NCBI GenBank assembly: GCA_002712305.1
Contig: PATE01000066.1
Coordinates: forward strand, 1 to 6,288
Source: Gemmatimonadota bacterium
Lineage (GTDB): Bacteria > Latescibacterota > UBA2968 > UBA8231
Reading direction: 5' to 3'
Length of the DNA stretch: 6,288 nucleotides
Position numbers and translations under genes: made by a program. Within the stretch, counting starts at the first letter, position 1. Each line of letters begins with the position of its first letter. Shown here piece after piece: positions 1 through 6,288 of this stretch. Under the pieces are notes generated by a model. That model was not told the origin of the DNA. It made no database searches and saw only the letters and a program-made list of their open reading frames with translations.

Positions 1-461
1 ATGTTCCTCTTGGTTTTACCCTTTTCGCCAGTCGCATTCGTGCCATGCTGACGGTGAGTGCTCTTGATCTGGGGCTGTTGCAGCGCAAGGAGGAGGGGAA
101 CAGTCGCTATCTGCGCATTTTCGATGCGCGCACGCGCACCGACTTCTGCGTCGACAGCTCAAATGGTCAGATCACCAGCTACAATCGGTGTTCGGGTGAC
201 ACAGATGTGCTGCGTTCCATGTCGGTAGATCTCAACTTCCTTCCCGTCACCGAGCTCTACGTAGCTGATCGCCTCGGTGCCGTGCACGTAGGTCTGGGTG
301 CACGCGCCTTCAAGCCACGTACGCTTTACGGCACATTGGGCATGTTCTTCCCGTCTGAATCGGGACGCGCCATCGGTGCACAGCTGTCGATGGGTCGTGA
401 ATACATCTTCTTAGGCATGAAGTGGGGGCTCGACATCCGTCGGATCTCCAAGTGGCTCTGA
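1..461 (+). CDS. C-terminal part of a probable outer-membrane beta-barrel protein (5'-truncated)
   Basis: The reading frame is open from base 3 to a TGA at 459-461 and has no stop before the window edge. The first ATG in frame (45) has no Shine-Dalgarno sequence before it and sits inside continuous coding, so I read this as the last ~152 residues of a longer protein. No family motif is recognised. Several stretches alternate polar and hydrophobic residues with frequent Gly and aromatics, for example GAVHVGLGARAF, TLYGTLGMFF and YIFLGMKWGLDI, as expected of strands in an outer-membrane barrel. Two cysteines (codons 147-149 and 189-191) are 14 residues apart in a polar segment and could form a disulfide in an exposed loop. 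The protein ends in KWL, so the usual terminal aromatic residue is one position from the end. It converges on the YtoQ gene across an 18-bp gap. That the gene is real is fairly sure; the barrel assignment is inference, and a soluble beta-rich protein is possible. Confidence 0.62.
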   Translation, partial: VPLGFTLFASRIRAMLTVSALDLGLLQRKEEGNSRYLRIFDARTRTDFCVDSSNGQITSYNRCSGDTDVLRSMSVDLNFLPVTELYVADRLGAVHVGLGARAFKPRTLYGTLGMFFPSESGRAIGAQLSMGREYIFLGMKWGLDIRRISKWL

Positions 462-479
462 TCCGCGTCCACGACCCGC

Positions 480-935
480 CTACTGCTTACCTTCGATCAC
501 GTAGCTGAGCAGATCCACCACCTGCTCGGGTTGGGAGGCCACGGCCAGGGCGGCGGCATCCACTTCCTTGAGGGCGTGCGTGAGATCGGCATCGTGCAGG
601 ATGATGAGTGGTTTGCCCAGGGCGCAGGCGAACCCGGCGTCGAAGGCCGCGTTCCACTGCCGATACTTGTCGCCAAAACGGACCACCACGATATCAGCGT
701 GCCGGATCAGCGTGCGGGTGCGGATGGCGTTGACCTGGGCCCCTTTATGGTCCTTCCAAAAACCATCATTCTCCTCTCCGAGAATGCGCACGCCCACATC
801 ATCACTGGCGCCATGATCGGTCACCGGCGCACTCACATCGACGGGCAGATCTGCGGCGGTGGCTCCCGAGATGATTCGCTCACGCCAGTCACTGTGGATC
901 TCACCGGATAGGTAGATACTCCAACGTCTCTGCAC
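480..935 (-). CDS. ytoQ: YtoQ family protein (nucleoside 2-deoxyribosyltransferase-like fold)
   Basis: This complete 151-residue protein matches the YtoQ family, named after the Bacillus subtilis protein, in length and motifs. Family hallmarks are YLSGEIHSDWR at residues 8-18, the KDHKGAQVNAIRT block at 61-73, the strand HADIVVVRFGDKYRQWN at 79-95, and FDAGFACALGKPLIIL at 98-113. The family is placed near nucleoside 2-deoxyribosyltransferases, small Rossmann-like enzymes that cleave or exchange N-glycosidic bonds. In those enzymes a catalytic Glu precedes the Gly/Ala-rich ALGKP helix, whereas here the matching residue is Asp99. As far as I know no reaction has been established for YtoQ. It should be cytoplasmic, since there is no signal peptide or membrane segment. 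The start is GTG at 933-935, chosen because a perfect AGGAGG lies 6 bases upstream and the family motif begins seven codons in. The stop is TAG. It diverges from the small helical gene and converges on the barrel gene, so it is probably monocistronic. Family call: high confidence; enzymatic role: inferred only. Confidence 0.93.
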   Translation of the reverse strand: MQRRWSIYLSGEIHSDWRERIISGATAADLPVDVSAPVTDHGASDDVGVRILGEENDGFWKDHKGAQVNAIRTRTLIRHADIVVVRFGDKYRQWNAAFDAGFACALGKPLIILHDADLTHALKEVDAAALAVASQPEQVVDLLSYVIEGKQ

Positions 936-1357: not shown

Positions 1358-4300
1358 CTACGGCAGCAGGACAAGCCCACCGCGGTGGCGTCGAACCTGC
1401 TTGCCGTCGTCGCGATCGGTCGCCGTGACCACGTAGAGGTAGGTACCCGACGCCACCAGGCGTCCATCGTCGCCGGTACGATCCCATCGAAGTTGACCAA
1501 ACCCCGCTTCATGCAGCTGGGGCCCGAGTCGCCGCACCCGCCGCCCACTGACACCGTACACGTCGACCTGAACGCGCGCCGCGTGGGATAGCACCCAGGT
1601 GAAGGCACCCTCGCTACGCACCGGGTGCGGGGCGACCAGCACGTTGGCCAGCCGGAGGCGCTCATCGACCCGAATCCGCAGTTCGCCCACGCCGAATTCG
1701 ATTCCATCACGCACGAGCGCCGAACGTAGGCGGTGAGGGCCAGGGGGCAGGTGATGCAGCAGGGCCGGTGCACCGTCGGAGGTGGTCCAGGTGGAGTCCG
1801 CCACGATCGACTCGCCATCGACCTGCAGTTGAAGTTGGCCAGATGCCAGCGGCGGAGCCAGGACACGGATGGCGTGGGTCGAACCTACCGCATCGCCATC
1901 CCGCAGACGCTGGCCCGTTTCTACATCGAAGAACGCGATTGTCGTCAACCCAGGCAGGTTCAGGACCAACTCGACGGCATCGTTGAGACCCCGACCATCT
2001 GCCGTTGACGGCTGCAGACGTACAAACAGGCCCTCTCCCAAGTCAGGTAACAGGATGGGATCGAACAGGGTCCTCTGCGATTCACCTCTGGCAAGGGGAT
2101 CTATCGACGTCTGTGCCAGAACACGACCGTCCTGCTCCAGGGTCAATCGCGCCCCACCGGACGAGGTGAGCCCTCGGTTGCGAATCCAGCACTGCACGTG
2201 GAGTTGACCGTCAACGACATCTGCGGATGCGGCCCCCAATTCGAGGTCGGCCGCCGGATCATAGTGCATTTCAAACCGGCGCACGGTCTGCGTTGTATCG
2301 GGACCGATCTGGGCTCGAATTCGAAGGAACCGATAGTCGGCCGCGTCGATCTGGCTGGCCAGGTCGAGGTTCCAGGGTGCTGTCCCCCTCGCAAGGGAGA
2401 CCCATTCGTTGTCCGGGCCGCGTCCTTCGACCTCAATAGACGCACCGTCCCCGTCGACCTGTAACGATGTCCACGAGGCGGCCGGTCCTACGGTTTCGCC
2501 AACGACCTGCCCTGCAGCCACGTCTGAAGCACGTGAATATCCGAACAGGCCGGACCCCCATAGATCGCCGAGCCAGATCAGGTCATTTACAGGATCGAAC
2601 TGCCCGGAAATGACACGTGTCGTGTCCTGGTCGCTGTGCCACTCGTCAAGGAATCGCCCATCCTCGGCACTGACCATACGAATGCGCCGTTCTCCGGCGA
2701 ACTCGATCAGATAGAGGCGCTCCCCATCTGCGACGACGCCATCGGTCCAGCGAAAGGTGAACCCACTCTCCGTAGGAGGGATGACGAAGTCTCGCTGCAG
2801 ATGCCAGTCTCCCGTCTCGTCGACATCGAAGACGCGAACGCCCCAGCCTACACGGGTCCCACGATGGGAACTCATGGATACGTTGTAGATCTGTTCACCA
2901 TCGGAGGTGATCAACGCGTGCAGCACCTGTCCTGGCAGACGGTCCTGCTCGGTCACGACTCGGCCGGTGACCCAATCGAGCAGCCCATCTGGGACGTTCA
3001 CCGTGTCCAACCGACCCGACGCCGGATCGACTCGCTCGATCTGAAAACTCATCCCTGCTTCACTATACAGGAAACCATCATGGTAGGTGGCGCTGATCCC
3101 GGCGGTGGTGGTGTCGGTCAGGATGCCATAGTCACCGCCACGGATACTGCCATTGAAACCGGTGCCGACCCGCGAGAACGTGTCGCCTCCCGGGTAGATC
3201 GTCGACGAATCATTGAACCAACGTTTGGCATACAGATACGTACCGTCTGTGGCCAGAACCCCTGCTCCGGGCAGGCTCAGGAGTGTAAACCCAATCTCTC
3301 TCGTCGGCGTCGACGGTCGGAAGGCAGGTGTGTCGGCGCGGGCCACCAGCGCATCACCTCGCAACCGGACGCCGGAACCGTCGAGAAGATCGTCGGCCCC
3401 TTGCGACCAACTCACCGAATCAGCCGGCGTCTCCTGCGACCATCGCAGGGTACGTGTCTCGGACCACGGTCCCAATTGCATCCCGTCGACCAATCGGGCT
3501 CGCCAGTACAACACGTCGCCAAACTTGGCCCCCGCAGGTGGCTGAAGCTGGGCAGTTGCTCCCGCCGCTTGAGAAACGGCCATCGTCTGGGTGATGGCAT
3601 CCTCGAACGCCGGTGTCGTGGACAGGGCGAACTCTATGACGTCCAGCGGATTCGGGATGACGGATTGCAGATCGAGGGGGGCCAGGGCCTCCAGCTGGAG
3701 GTCAGTGCTGATCATACCTGACGGCGGCCACAGCAAGGTCGGACGCCGCGGGACAAGCACGTCGATGAACTCGTCGAGTCGATTGTTGGTTTCGTCGCGC
3801 TCTGCCGTCGAATTGTCGGCATCGATGTCAACCCGCAACAGATGAGTACCGCCGAATTCCGGTTGCCAGGAAAGCAGGAGCGTATCGGCCCCGATGAAGG
3901 GAGCCCGAGAGGCGTCGAAGAGCGTGTCGATGCCAGCGGATCTCTCGGCCACGATGTGGACCCGGATGCTGTCCTGTCCGAGGCGGGCGGCGCTGTTCAG
4001 GATTACCTCGATCGTGGTAGTCTCACCGCGCTGCGGGGGCTCTGCACCGACACGGATGCTCTGCGCGACATAGTCCGGATCAGATTCGAGGGCCAGACGC
4101 TGCATTGGATCACCGATCAGCTGCATCGTGAGTGGCACGTCAATGAACCCAGGATGAACCGAAAGCAGGCGTGATTTCGCCCATGTGAGAGCGCCTCCAA
4201 AGCCCAGTGGATCATCACTGAGCAATGCATCGTAGAGGAAATCGCTCAGCAGGTCGTGCTGGGCGGTCCGACTCTCGGCCGTGGCAGAGATAAACGCGAT

Positions 4301-6288
4301 AGCACCGTCCTGGGGTAGTTCGACAAACTGTTCGCTCAGCGCTTCGGTAGTGGGCTCCGAAAACAGACCGTTGAGGCAGGACAGGGCGATGACCAGTGGC
4401 AATCGACGGCCATTGGCCACCTGGCTCATGTAGTCCCAGTCGGGGAACTGTGCCGAGAACAGGAACTGCATCGTCGCCACTGCGCCATGTCCGGCGAAGT
4501 TGAAGATCAGCGCCCCGTTATTGAAGCCATCGAGGAATTGCTTTCCCGTGACATTGGGGATGTCTGAATCGTCGGGCGCATAGTAGCGTTGTGCCTGCAG
4601 CCCCATAGGGGCCATATGCCGGGCATACACGCTGTCACTCGGTGCGGTAAACAATCCTGCACCATGCCAGTTGGCAGCCAGGATGACTTGACTTCGCCAG
4701 TCGCCTTCGGCGGGCTCGTTGTCGTAGCGAATGATCTTGTCCACAACCAGATCGGCCTCTTGTGCATCGTCGACGGCGAGGCGCCCGATTACCAGGTCCG
4801 CCAGCAGATCATCCCCATCGACCAGGGCCAAAAGATGGTCGGAGGGAGAATACCCACGACCTCGCGCATTGTAGTACAGGGTGGGTACAAGGGTCTGATG
4901 CCGCCTTCCCGTGCGGATGCCCCGGTAGTCCCAGGTGGCATCGCCCATGAGAAGGATGAAAACAGGTCGAGGTGTCCAGCGCCGATAGATGTCGGTGATG
5001 AACTCTGCCAGCGGTTCGCGAGCGAACTGCCCGCCACTGTACTCATCAAAGACGTCCTGTACCGAGACCGTTCGTACTCGCAAGCCATCCCCAGCTCGAT
5101 GGGCAGCCAGACGCTGCGCGGCCTGGCCAAACTCAGCATGGTGAATGATCACGGCCTCTGCGCCTGAATCATGGCTGCGGAGGTCCGAGGGTTCGTCGAG
5201 TTCGAGCACCGGTAGGCGGATCGATAGACTGTCCACCATGAGGTAGTCGGGTGCATCCCCAACAACATCTTCGAAGGTTGCGCTGTAGAGGGAGTCCTCA
5301 AATTCTACAACAAGCCCCGTGAATAGACGCCGGTGGGCCACGTCGACGAGAGTCACCGCTGGATGCCGAAAGCCTTCCACCGTGATCTGATGCCCCTCAG
5401 GCGCTGGCTCGGTCGCGAAGTTCAGCAGTCCCGGGTGGGCGTGGAACTGGCGACGAAAGGTGAGCTCAAACCAATTGAACCAGATGTGATCCTCGCGCGA
5501 GAGATCTGCGATGGCCTGAAACAAGACCCGATTGCGGTCGGCCAGCAGCGACGAGGGGATGGTCTCATCAAAGAGAAATGCGGTCTGACCACTCCACACA
5601 CCCTCGGCAAGCGGCTCATTGTTCAGCGTCACGAAGGCATGATGATCGCCCACCACTGCCGGCGTCTTACCTGTGGCCGACACACGCAGCCGGGCCAAAT
5701 ATGGATCGCCATCTTCTAAGAGGCCGGTCACGTCACCCACAAAGATCTGACTGGAGCGGACCGATGGGTCCCTGGCGATCAAGGGACGATCATTGCGCCA
5801 GAACCATCGATCGCTCAAGGTGTCGGGGGCTTCTTCCAGCTGGTCGAAGGACTGGTCGAGTTCGAAATGCTGGCGATGGGAGTACCACTTGATCGTGGGA
5901 AAGTCGGAATCAGGCGCTCCATCGACGATGTCATACCGCGGGCTCGTCTGTTCGCCCCCCCATGTGAGCCAGTAGGTCTGGGTCGGACCATACTCGCTCT
6001 CGTGATCACGTTCGCCCTCCGGGCCGGGGGCTCGACGATATCGCCCTGCAAAGATGATCTCGTCGTCTTCATCGAAACGACCATCCTCACCACCGATCAC
6101 ATGAAGTGGTTGATCATTGCCGGTGAGCACGAGCCGAAGTCTTGCTGGGTCTACATCGCCAGGATCGATACCAAAAAAGCGGAGACGGGCTGCCGTAATG
6201 CGATAGAGACCATCCGCGTCTACGAAGATCTTCACCCAGGGCAACGACGAGTCATACCAATCGCCACCGACCTGGCGACGGGCAGGTG
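1358..6288 (-). CDS. Giant multidomain C25 (gingipain-type) cysteine peptidase with FlgD-like/type IX sorting tail, N-terminus outside the window
   Basis: At least 1642 residues are encoded, ending in TAG at 1358-1360. The frame stays open to base 6288, so the start and any signal peptide lie beyond the window. The TTG at 6242-6244 falls inside conserved sequence (GGDWYDSSLPWVKIFVDADG) and is not the start. Residues are counted from the codon at 6284-6286. Visible regions are: a PorU/gingipain-like N-terminal segment with DGLYRIT (26-32) and EDGRFDEDDEIIF (67-79); a beta-rich domain (~130-360); the C25 caspase-like peptidase (~374-730); a CARDB-like Ig domain (~736-846); an Fn3-like domain (~847-950); a propeller-like region (~989-1254); a beta-sandwich (~1264-1342); a second CARDB-like domain (~1344-1444); another Ig-like domain (~1448-1540); and the FlgD-like/sorting tail (~1544-1642). 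Catalytic His600 (AGHGA) and Cys637 (LSCLNG) are both present. It is probably a secreted, surface-attached protease. The sorting tail argues against it being the PorU sortase itself, which lacks one. Substrate unknown. Confidence 0.93.
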   Translation of the reverse strand, partial: PARRQVGGDWYDSSLPWVKIFVDADGLYRITAARLRFFGIDPGDVDPARLRLVLTGNDQPLHVIGGEDGRFDEDDEIIFAGRYRRAPGPEGERDHESEYGPTQTYWLTWGGEQTSPRYDIVDGAPDSDFPTIKWYSHRQHFELDQSFDQLEEAPDTLSDRWFWRNDRPLIARDPSVRSSQIFVGDVTGLLEDGDPYLARLRVSATGKTPAVVGDHHAFVTLNNEPLAEGVWSGQTAFLFDETIPSSLLADRNRVLFQAIADLSREDHIWFNWFELTFRRQFHAHPGLLNFATEPAPEGHQITVEGFRHPAVTLVDVAHRRLFTGLVVEFEDSLYSATFEDVVGDAPDYLMVDSLSIRLPVLELDEPSDLRSHDSGAEAVIIHHAEFGQAAQRLAAHRAGDGLRVRTVSVQDVFDEYSGGQFAREPLAEFITDIYRRWTPRPVFILLMGDATWDYRGIRTGRRHQTLVPTLYYNARGRGYSPSDHLLALVDGDDLLADLVIGRLAVDDAQEADLVVDKIIRYDNEPAEGDWRSQVILAANWHGAGLFTAPSDSVYARHMAPMGLQAQRYYAPDDSDIPNVTGKQFLDGFNNGALIFNFAGHGAVATMQFLFSAQFPDWDYMSQVANGRRLPLVIALSCLNGLFSEPTTEALSEQFVELPQDGAIAFISATAESRTAQHDLLSDFLYDALLSDDPLGFGGALTWAKSRLLSVHPGFIDVPLTMQLIGDPMQRLALESDPDYVAQSIRVGAEPPQRGETTTIEVILNSAARLGQDSIRVHIVAERSAGIDTLFDASRAPFIGADTLLLSWQPEFGGTHLLRVDIDADNSTAERDETNNRLDEFIDVLVPRRPTLLWPPSGMISTDLQLEALAPLDLQSVIPNPLDVIEFALSTTPAFEDAITQTMAVSQAAGATAQLQPPAGAKFGDVLYWRARLVDGMQLGPWSETRTLRWSQETPADSVSWSQGADDLLDGSGVRLRGDALVARADTPAFRPSTPTREIGFTLLSLPGAGVLATDGTYLYAKRWFNDSSTIYPGGDTFSRVGTGFNGSIRGGDYGILTDTTTAGISATYHDGFLYSEAGMSFQIERVDPASGRLDTVNVPDGLLDWVTGRVVTEQDRLPGQVLHALITSDGEQIYNVSMSSHRGTRVGWGVRVFDVDETGDWHLQRDFVIPPTESGFTFRWTDGVVADGERLYLIEFAGERRIRMVSAEDGRFLDEWHSDQDTTRVISGQFDPVNDLIWLGDLWGSGLFGYSRASDVAAGQVVGETVGPAASWTSLQVDGDGASIEVEGRGPDNEWVSLARGTAPWNLDLASQIDAADYRFLRIRAQIGPDTTQTVRRFEMHYDPAADLELGAASADVVDGQLHVQCWIRNRGLTSSGGARLTLEQDGRVLAQTSIDPLARGESQRTLFDPILLPDLGEGLFVRLQPSTADGRGLNDAVELVLNLPGLTTIAFFDVETGQRLRDGDAVGSTHAIRVLAPPLASGQLQLQVDGESIVADSTWTTSDGAPALLHHLPPGPHRLRSALVRDGIEFGVGELRIRVDERLRLANVLVAPHPVRSEGAFTWVLSHAARVQVDVYGVSGRRVRRLGPQLHEAGFGQLRWDRTGDDGRLVASGTYLYVVTATDRDDGKQVRRHRGGLVLLP
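1361..1657 (-). other. FlgD-like / type IX secretion-type C-terminal domain (inside the large gene)
   Basis: The last ~99 residues match the pattern shared by FlgD Ig-like domains and type A sorting domains. APHPV comes near the start, then VQVDVYGVSGRRVRRL, then a Trp-Asp-x-x-Gly-Asp-Asp-Gly turn (RWDRTGDDGRLVASG), then GTYLYVVTA, ending in RHRGGLVLLP. In Bacteroidota such tails direct passage through the type IX system and are then cut and replaced by a surface anchor. Many candidate phyla carry similar tails without a proven exporter, so the transport route here is inferred. Confidence 0.8.
2558..3262 (-). repeat. Five degenerate propeller-like protein repeats (inside the large gene)
   Basis: Five spaced copies of a blade-like strand motif occur: LATDGTYLYAKRW, SATYHDGFLYSEAG, LITSDGEQIYNVS, VVADGERLYLIEFAG and QFDPVNDLIWLGDLW. 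Their starts are about 55, 59, 58 and 46 residues apart, near the length of a beta-propeller blade. The shared core is a small residue, then Asp-Gly, then a hydrophobic-Tyr pair. The copies are diverged at the DNA level, so this is an old protein repeat and not a recent tandem duplication. A propeller of five to seven blades is likely, probably for binding a ligand or partner. Fold inferred from pattern only. Confidence 0.55.
3749..4081 (-). other. First CARDB-like Ig domain (inside the large gene)
   Basis: Directly after the peptidase, residues ~736-846 read like a CARDB-type adhesive Ig fold: RGETTTIEVILNSA opens a strand pair and HLLRVDIDADN followed by ERDETNNRLD gives the characteristic acidic Asn-Asn turn. 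In gingipain-like proteins an Ig domain at this position packs against the catalytic domain. The family call rests on these motifs alone. Confidence 0.7.
4097..5167 (-). other. C25 peptidase domain with intact His-Cys dyad (inside the large gene)
   Basis: Within the large protein, residues ~374-730 follow the gingipain pattern. First comes a lead-in DVFDEYSGG, then RPVFILLMGDATWDYRG, the strand and Asp loop typical of the family. Next are VPTLYYN, then SDHLLALVDGDDLLADLVIGR split over two adjacent motifs and a KIIRYDNEP helix end. The catalytic His lies in FNFAGHGA (codon 4487-4489) and the catalytic Cys in IALSCLNGLF (codon 4376-4378), 37 residues apart. The domain closes with AFISATAES and LTMQLIGDP, also family-like. 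Nothing suggests inactivation. Confidence 0.92.

What the first reader, a model, noticed from the sequence alone, without database searches (positions are those of the whole stretch)
1358..6288. Gingipain-type protease fused to a propeller and two CARDB-like domains plus a sorting tail
Classical gingipains and the PorU sortase are simpler: peptidase, Ig domain and, in gingipains, adhesin and tail. Here the catalytic domain is followed by about 900 residues of binding-type domains, including a propeller-like region between Fn3-like and discoidin-like segments. An active His-Cys dyad with this long tail suggests a protease targeted to a particular surface, polymer or partner, and not a general housekeeping sortase.
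Basis: partly seen in the sequence, partly recalled or inferred. Interest (0 to 1): 0.6.

Follow-up and report, generated by a model that had tools for sequence, protein, structure and literature searches.

The report
Propeller-bearing PorU-like surface protease
An uncultured bacterium of the phylum Latescibacterota makes a surface protease related to the enzyme that sorts proteins exported by the type IX secretion system, with a built-in five-bladed ring domain; in two sister families it is the only such enzyme left, so it may do the sorting there by itself.

Summary
Confirmed: window 1358-6286 (-) encodes most of a ~1,832-aa secreted C25 cysteine protease. Its order is PorU-like N-terminal region, C25 (His600/Cys637), CARDB, Ig-like, propeller, sandwich, weak CARDB, Ig-like, FlgD-type tail. 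The middle is a real propeller: AlphaFold pLDDT 85, five-bladed, closest to glutaminyl cyclases and olfactomedin (Z about 17). Pfam does not name it.

The protein is a single-copy, class-wide clade in Latescibacterota (37 of 47 genomes of the class held), separate from canonical PorU (100/100). The propeller is its most conserved part. It fails the PorU and PorU2 curated cut-offs.

The window's genome also has two canonical porZ-porU pairs. But in 20 of 21 genomes of two sister families the propeller protein is the only C25. There canonical PorU and PorZ are gone, while SprA, PorV and tailed cargo remain, and the gene usually sits beside a membrane glycosyltransferase-like gene, often within a surface-glycan operon.

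Best explanation: a PorU-like C-terminal sorting protease whose propeller recognises the glycan anchor or cargo, replacing PorU and PorZ there. This is inferred from co-loss, synteny and conserved catalytic residues; no activity is shown. New variant of a known kind.

The parts
1358..6286 (-). coding sequence of the propeller-bearing C25 protein (5' end outside the window, at about 6856 of the contig)
5177..6286 (-). PorU-like N-terminal region (aa 1-370 of the window part)
   Evidence: NF033707 and NF052324 match from aa 16/aa 4 onward, below cut-off
4094..5152 (-). Peptidase C25 domain (aa 379-731)
   Evidence: PF01364 E 2e-66; PDB relatives PorU 6za2 E 6.9e-36 and RgpB
4487..4489 (-). catalytic His600 codon (GHG)
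   Evidence: aligned with RgpB H211; invariant 29/29
4376..4378 (-). catalytic Cys637 codon (SCLNG)
   Evidence: aligned with RgpB C244; invariant 29/29
4634..4636 (-). Asp551 codon, aligned with the S1-pocket Asp163 of RgpB
   Evidence: 26 of 29 orthologues Asp; role from knowledge of RgpB
3752..4069 (-). CARDB/Ig domain 1 (aa 740-845)
   Evidence: PF07705; CARDB structures 3idu, 2kl6
3452..3751 (-). Ig/Fn3-like strand-rich block (aa 846-945)
   Evidence: model strands; no Pfam match
2519..3337 (-). five-bladed beta-propeller (aa 984-1256)
   Evidence: model pLDDT 85; Z 16-17 to glutaminyl cyclase and olfactomedin; most conserved block
2252..2512 (-). beta-sandwich after the propeller (aa 1259-1345), family unknown
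   Evidence: model strands pLDDT > 90; no Pfam match above cut-off
1967..2251 (-). second CARDB-like block (aa 1346-1440), weak
   Evidence: PF07705 20.3 bits, cut-off 22.7
1652..1966 (-). Ig-like linker block (aa 1441-1545)
   Evidence: no Pfam match; poorly conserved
1361..1651 (-). C-terminal FlgD_ig-type sorting tail (aa 1546-1642)
   Evidence: PF13860 2.2e-9; CHU_C T9SS signal 0.014

Best explanation
The protein is secreted (Sec, then T9SS through its FlgD-type tail) and works at the cell surface as a PorU-like C-terminal sorting protease: the C25 Cys-His dyad cuts the sorting domain off T9SS cargo and may pass the new C-terminus to an anchor. The olfactomedin/glutaminyl-cyclase-type propeller in the same chain recognises a conserved partner, most likely the surface glycan anchor (the job PorZ does as a separate protein) or the cargo/PorV. 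In families f3 and f4 of the class it is the sole C25 and stands in for the lost PorU-PorZ pair; in the window's own family it is a second sortase beside canonical PorU/PorZ. Shown: domains, intact dyad, clade, co-loss pattern, synteny. Inferred: cleavage of cargo, transpeptidation, glycan binding.
For: C25 and dyad conserved 29/29. Best solved relative is PorU, E 6.9e-36, ahead of gingipains. Only C25 in 20 of 21 f3/f4 genomes, including closed G027 and G030; the 21st, G042, has no C25 match but carries the propeller part at a contig end. Canonical PorU and PorZ are absent there while SprA, PorV and 6-22 Por_Secre_tail proteins per genome persist. In f1, 24 of 25 genomes keep a near full-length PorZ, and those lacking the propeller protein keep a short C25, porV-linked in seven of the eight that have any C25. 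In f3/f4 the gene lies at the end of a glycan cluster: membrane PMT-like protein upstream, touching or within 225 nt, in 14 loci; then GT4, epimerase, XrtA-type deacetylase and GT in f3; phosphodiesterase downstream. The propeller is more conserved than the catalytic domain (32% vs 22% of columns at 90% or more). PorZ propellers deliver A-LPS to PorU (PMC8545088), a precedent for the role.
Against: Scores 224 bits against PorU cut-off 420 and 182 against PorU2 cut-off 450. Not next to porV. The propeller is five-bladed and not PorZ-like (PorZ has two seven-fold propellers). The co-loss rests on one or two events in related families. G025 (f2, 91% complete) has SprA, PorV and 14 tailed proteins but no C25, so such systems may run without one. 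f3/f4 have fewer tailed cargo. In the window's own genome the neighbours are not a full glycan operon.
Confidence: 0.5

Rival explanations
1. A gingipain-like secreted endoprotease: ordinary T9SS cargo that is tethered by its propeller and CARDB domains to a polymer, prey or host surface and degrades proteins there; loss of PorU/PorZ in f3/f4 is unrelated.
For: Own FlgD-type cargo tail; strong RgpB similarity with the S1 Asp position kept in 26/29; the sister clade in f7-f9 consists of long C25 proteins without a propeller that coexist with canonical PorU; lost in part of f1.
Against: Single copy, class-wide, vertically distributed and with a near-invariant propeller, unlike a niche protease; the only C25 in f3/f4; glycan-operon linkage; closest solved structure is PorU.
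Confidence: 0.33
2. A dedicated second sortase (PorU2-like) for a subset of cargo in all lineages, each pair of sortase and cargo having its own tail type; the general sorting in f3/f4 is done without a C25.
For: Matches the PorU2 N-terminal model over its full length (18-879 of 879), as PorU2 should, though at 182 of 450 bits; G025 runs SprA/PorV without any C25.
Against: Below the PorU2 cut-off; no PorV2 partner was found next to it; no paper on PorU2 was found.
Confidence: 0.12
3. Assembly artefact: a C25 gene and a propeller gene joined by misassembly.
For: Metagenome-assembled contig with some undetermined bases upstream of the window.
Against: Same full-length order in genomes from many independent projects, including closed chromosomes.
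Confidence: 0.01

Closest known systems
PorU, T9SS C-terminal signal peptidase/sortase (NF033707; PDB 6za2)
   Same: N-terminal region, C25 domain, Cys-His dyad, Ig-like domains, Ig-type C-terminal tail; found in T9SS-bearing genomes
   Different: 224 of 420 bits; model covered only to 735 of 1095; not beside porV; 1,830 aa instead of about 1,150-1,300; carries a propeller, a sandwich and weak CARDB/Ig-like blocks; separate clade
Gingipains RgpB/Kgp (peptidase family C25)
   Same: catalytic fold and dyad; Asp at the S1 position; own sorting tail
   Different: PorU-like N-terminal region, propeller, class-wide single copy, no haemagglutinin-adhesin repeats found
PorZ (NF052228, PF21544)
   Same: beta-propeller protein acting with PorU, sorting tail; present in f1 where PorU is present, missing where the propeller-C25 is the only C25
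   Different: PorZ has two seven-fold propellers and is a separate chain; the propeller here is one five-bladed olfactomedin/glutaminyl-cyclase-type domain with no sequence match to PorZ
Olfactomedin and glutaminyl cyclase five-bladed propellers
   Same: fold, Z 16-17 over about 215-240 residues
   Different: 9-12% identity; no match to the Pfam olfactomedin family; only one weak match to Glu_cyclase_2 among 32 members
Long C25 proteins of other Latescibacterota classes (L131, L133, L149)
   Same: nearest non-propeller relatives on the tree, FlgD-type tail
   Different: no propeller detected

Membership tests
Peptidase family C25 | Pfam C25 score and Cys-His catalytic dyad | tested here: met
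   225 bits, cut-off 23; H600/C637 align with RgpB H211/C244
PorU sortase (NF033707 equivalog) | score at or above curated cut-off 420 | tested here: not met
   224 bits; canonical copies in the same genome reach 606 and 670
PorU sortase (NF033707 equivalog) | clade with the porV/porZ-linked PorU of the phylum | tested here: not met
   separate sides of a 100/100 branch
PorU sortase (NF033707 equivalog) | cleaves cargo CTDs and attaches the anchor | not testable with these tools
   needs protein chemistry
PorU2 (NF052324) | score at or above cut-off 450 | tested here: not met
   182 bits, though over positions 18-879 of 879
T9SS cargo | C-terminal Ig-type sorting domain (TIGR04183/PF18962) | tested here: inconclusive
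   FlgD_ig 37.6 bits over cut-off 27; CHU_C 0.014; no TIGR04183 match in the window protein, 19.7 bits (cut-off 23) in orthologue L143
T9SS cargo | T9SS translocon present in the genome | tested here: met
   SprA over cut-off and PorV family in G000
Gingipain | general Arg/Lys protease activity | not testable with these tools
   S1 Asp position kept in 26/29, not diagnostic because PorU has an Asp there too
PorZ | two seven-fold propellers, PF21544/NF052228 match | tested here: not met
   five-bladed model; no PF21544 hit to the propeller and no listed hit at its locus
Olfactomedin domain | sequence family match | tested here: not met
   no olfactomedin match in Pfam for any of 32 members at E <= 1
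Olfactomedin/glutaminyl cyclase fold | five-bladed propeller fold | tested here: met
   Z 16-17
Discoidin (F5/8 C) domain | sequence family match in the segment after the propeller | tested here: not met
   no match

The most novel reading that the evidence does not exclude
Displacement of the T9SS attachment complex: in part of Latescibacterota the PorU sortase and the PorZ anchor-delivery protein have been replaced by one chain that carries both the C25 transpeptidase and an olfactomedin-like propeller that presents the surface-glycan anchor made by the adjoining operon.
Probability: 0.3. Interest if true: 0.75.

Novelty: new variant of a known kind. Interest (0 to 1): 0.52.

Why it matters
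T9SS sorting is studied almost only in Bacteroidota, where PorU, PorV, PorQ and PorZ form the attachment complex. A lineage with SprA, PorV and cargo but with a different, propeller-fused C25 as its only C25 protein would show that the sorting step can be rebuilt with another enzyme, and would make the question 'what must PorZ supply to PorU?' testable in a single polypeptide. It also exposes an unnamed bacterial five-bladed propeller family.

Tried and rejected
Idea that the propeller is a PorZ propeller in fusion: rejected as homology (five-bladed, olfactomedin/glutaminyl cyclase matches; no PF21544 hit), kept only as a functional analogy. PorZ did not appear among the structure matches; that absence alone excludes nothing. 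Idea that a hidden PorU sits beside porV in f3/f4: the conserved ~1,000-aa neighbour is a T9SS-dependent M6-like inactivated metalloprotease with a Por_Secre_tail, not a C25. Idea that an exosortase drives the XrtA-type glycan operon: no exosortase seen by eye among the ORFs of the region viewed (not searched by profile). Model of C25-to-sandwich (pTM 0.50) is too uncertain for the placement of the propeller relative to the active site. Searching for the propeller elsewhere: 1 of 387 Verrucomicrobiota, so the domain is rare there. Papers joining Latescibacter* with T9SS: none.

Full report
What is there. Window 1358-6286 (-) is one open frame that leaves the window at its high end. On the 11,935-base contig it runs to 6862 from a TTG, with an ATG two codons in (MTRVVVIWLALLGLGVESAHA...), so about 1,832 aa with a signal peptide by eye. 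Residue numbers below count from the window edge (1,642 aa). Pfam gives Peptidase_C25 379-731 (E 2e-66), CARDB (7.2e-8) and FlgD_ig 1562-1625 (1.2e-7). Block-wise scans give a weak second CARDB (20.3 bits, cut-off 22.7), FlgD_ig 37.6 bits for the tail, and nothing above cut-off for the Fn3-like, sandwich and last Ig-like blocks.

Catalytic site. A profile of 29 orthologues finds PorU (6za2) first, E 6.9e-36, then RgpB and Kgp; in the RgpB alignment H600 falls on H211 and C637 on C244. Both residues and their motifs (GHG, SCLNG) are invariant in 29 of 29. D551, opposite the S1 Asp163 of RgpB, is Asp in 26 of 29; PorU has an Asp there too, so it does not settle specificity.

The propeller. The model of aa 930-1360 (32-row alignment) has mean pLDDT 85.1. 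Re-alignment of Foldseek's best chains puts glutaminyl cyclases (3mbr, 2iwa) and olfactomedin domains (6qhj, 4rml) on top, Z 16-17, 3.1-4.3 A over 214-241 residues, 9-12% identity. Four DG(x)LY-type motifs plus one NxxxW motif, the latter assigned by eye, mark five blades; the aspartates at their positions are invariant. Pfam has no family for it: the best over 32 members are DUF6923 (0.0013) and Glu_cyclase_2 in one member (0.0027). It is the most conserved block of the protein: 32% of columns at 90% or more, against 22% for C25.

Who has it. Named relatives are Latescibacterota MAGs (several still filed as Gemmatimonadetes, one as Handelsmanbacteria). All 64 genomes of the phylum held were searched with the propeller profile: 37 have it, all within the window's class (16 of 25 in family f1, 0 of 1 in f2, 21 of 21 in f3/f4); no genome outside the class has it. 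Complete copies are all in C25 frames of about 1,800-2,200 aa. Outside the phylum the genome scan gave only a giant ORF in a Spartobacteria MAG and an Omnitrophota ORF with the propeller; 1 of 387 sampled genomes of the former's phylum has it.

Relation to PorU. The window genome has four C25 places. Two, of 1,270 and 1,295 aa frames, score 606 and 670 with the PorU model (cut-off 420) and each lies directly behind a PorZ gene. The window protein scores 224 (PorU) and 182 (PorU2, cut-off 450). In a tree of the shared N-terminal plus C25 region the 19 propeller proteins are one side of a 100/99 branch and 27 canonical PorU proteins are one side of a 100/100 branch. Long C25 proteins of other classes without a propeller lie nearest the propeller clade, but the tool warns of long branches meeting there. 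So it is an old paralogue of PorU, not PorU itself.

The pattern that matters. In f3 and f4 (G026-G046) 20 of 21 genomes have exactly one C25 gene and it is the propeller type (in G036 the C25 and the propeller lie on two contig ends); G042 has only the propeller part at a contig end. These genomes keep SprA over cut-off, PorV-family proteins and 6-22 Por_Secre_tail proteins. They have no PorZ: PF21544 0 of 22 in f2-f4, and NF052228 only fragment matches, E 5e-10 or weaker, against near full-length matches (E 1.5e-41 or better) in 24 of 25 f1 genomes. In f1, G016, G018 and G020-G024 lack the propeller protein and keep a porV-linked PorU; G006 lacks it and keeps a short C25. Within the class only G010 (75% complete) and G025 (f2) have neither kind. 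This is few independent events, so it is suggestive, not proof.

Context. In f3/f4 a 507-566-aa PMT-like membrane protein lies directly upstream of the propeller-C25 gene, touching or within 225 nt, in 14 loci, preceded in most by a GT4 glycosyltransferase and an NAD epimerase, and in f3 by an XrtA-type polysaccharide deacetylase (TIGR03006, 293 bits, cut-off 276) and a further glycosyltransferase; a type I phosphodiesterase follows in f3. The PMT assignment is weak: one orthologue matched PMT_2 at 3.8e-4, below cut-off, another nothing. In the window genome the flanks are a divergent PMT_2 membrane protein (1.6e-12) and a YtoQ-family protein.

How it probably works. T9SS carries PorU and PorZ to the surface, where both keep their own tails; PorU cuts the CTD off cargo and, with A-LPS delivered by PorZ, attaches the anchor (PMC11285876, PMC8545088). 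The simplest reading of the above is that the propeller-C25 does the same step, with the recognition part on the same chain. Shown here: domains, intact dyad, distribution, tree, synteny. Inferred: cargo cleavage, transfer, glycan binding. The main rival is a surface-tethered gingipain-like protease.

Novelty. Peptidase, CARDB, Ig and tail are known parts. The combination with an olfactomedin-like propeller, and its standing as sole C25 in two T9SS-bearing families, was not found described: no paper in the library joins Latescibacter* with T9SS, and none mentions PorU2.

Noticed in passing
L071:10001-10720 and L073:10001-10198: The same unnamed five-bladed propeller occurs without C25 inside a 4,679-aa ORF with glycosidase-like stretches in a Spartobacteria MAG, and at a contig end in an Omnitrophota MAG.
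   Followed up: partly
L006:4454-10601, L007:7300-13319 and G000:C4:24635-26785: The window's genome holds two adjacent porZ-porU pairs and a third PorZ, plus a partial C25 at a contig start (C40): several parallel PorU/PorZ sets in one genome.
   Followed up: partly
G025 (family f2): SprA, PorV-family proteins and 14 Por_Secre_tail proteins but no C25 and no PorZ match in a 91%-complete genome.
   Followed up: no
L136:9155-12199, L142:3183-6215: In f3/f4 the gene next to porV, where other families have porU, encodes a T9SS-dependent M6-like inactivated metalloprotease with a Por_Secre_tail (below the equivalog cut-off).
   Followed up: partly
L144:17013-17837: XrtA-system polysaccharide deacetylase over its curated cut-off in the operon that ends in the propeller-C25; no exosortase noticed in the stretch viewed.
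   Followed up: partly
window 480-935 (-): YtoQ-family gene conserved 332-483 bases downstream of the propeller-C25, same strand, in seven loci of the window's family.
   Followed up: no
G046:C48:66419-67873: A second, partial copy with the later propeller blades and the FlgD tail but no C25 match, in a genome that also has a full copy.
   Followed up: no
window 3-461 (+): Frame of 152 aa at the window edge with no NCBIfam match; a similar ORF is in five loci.
   Followed up: no
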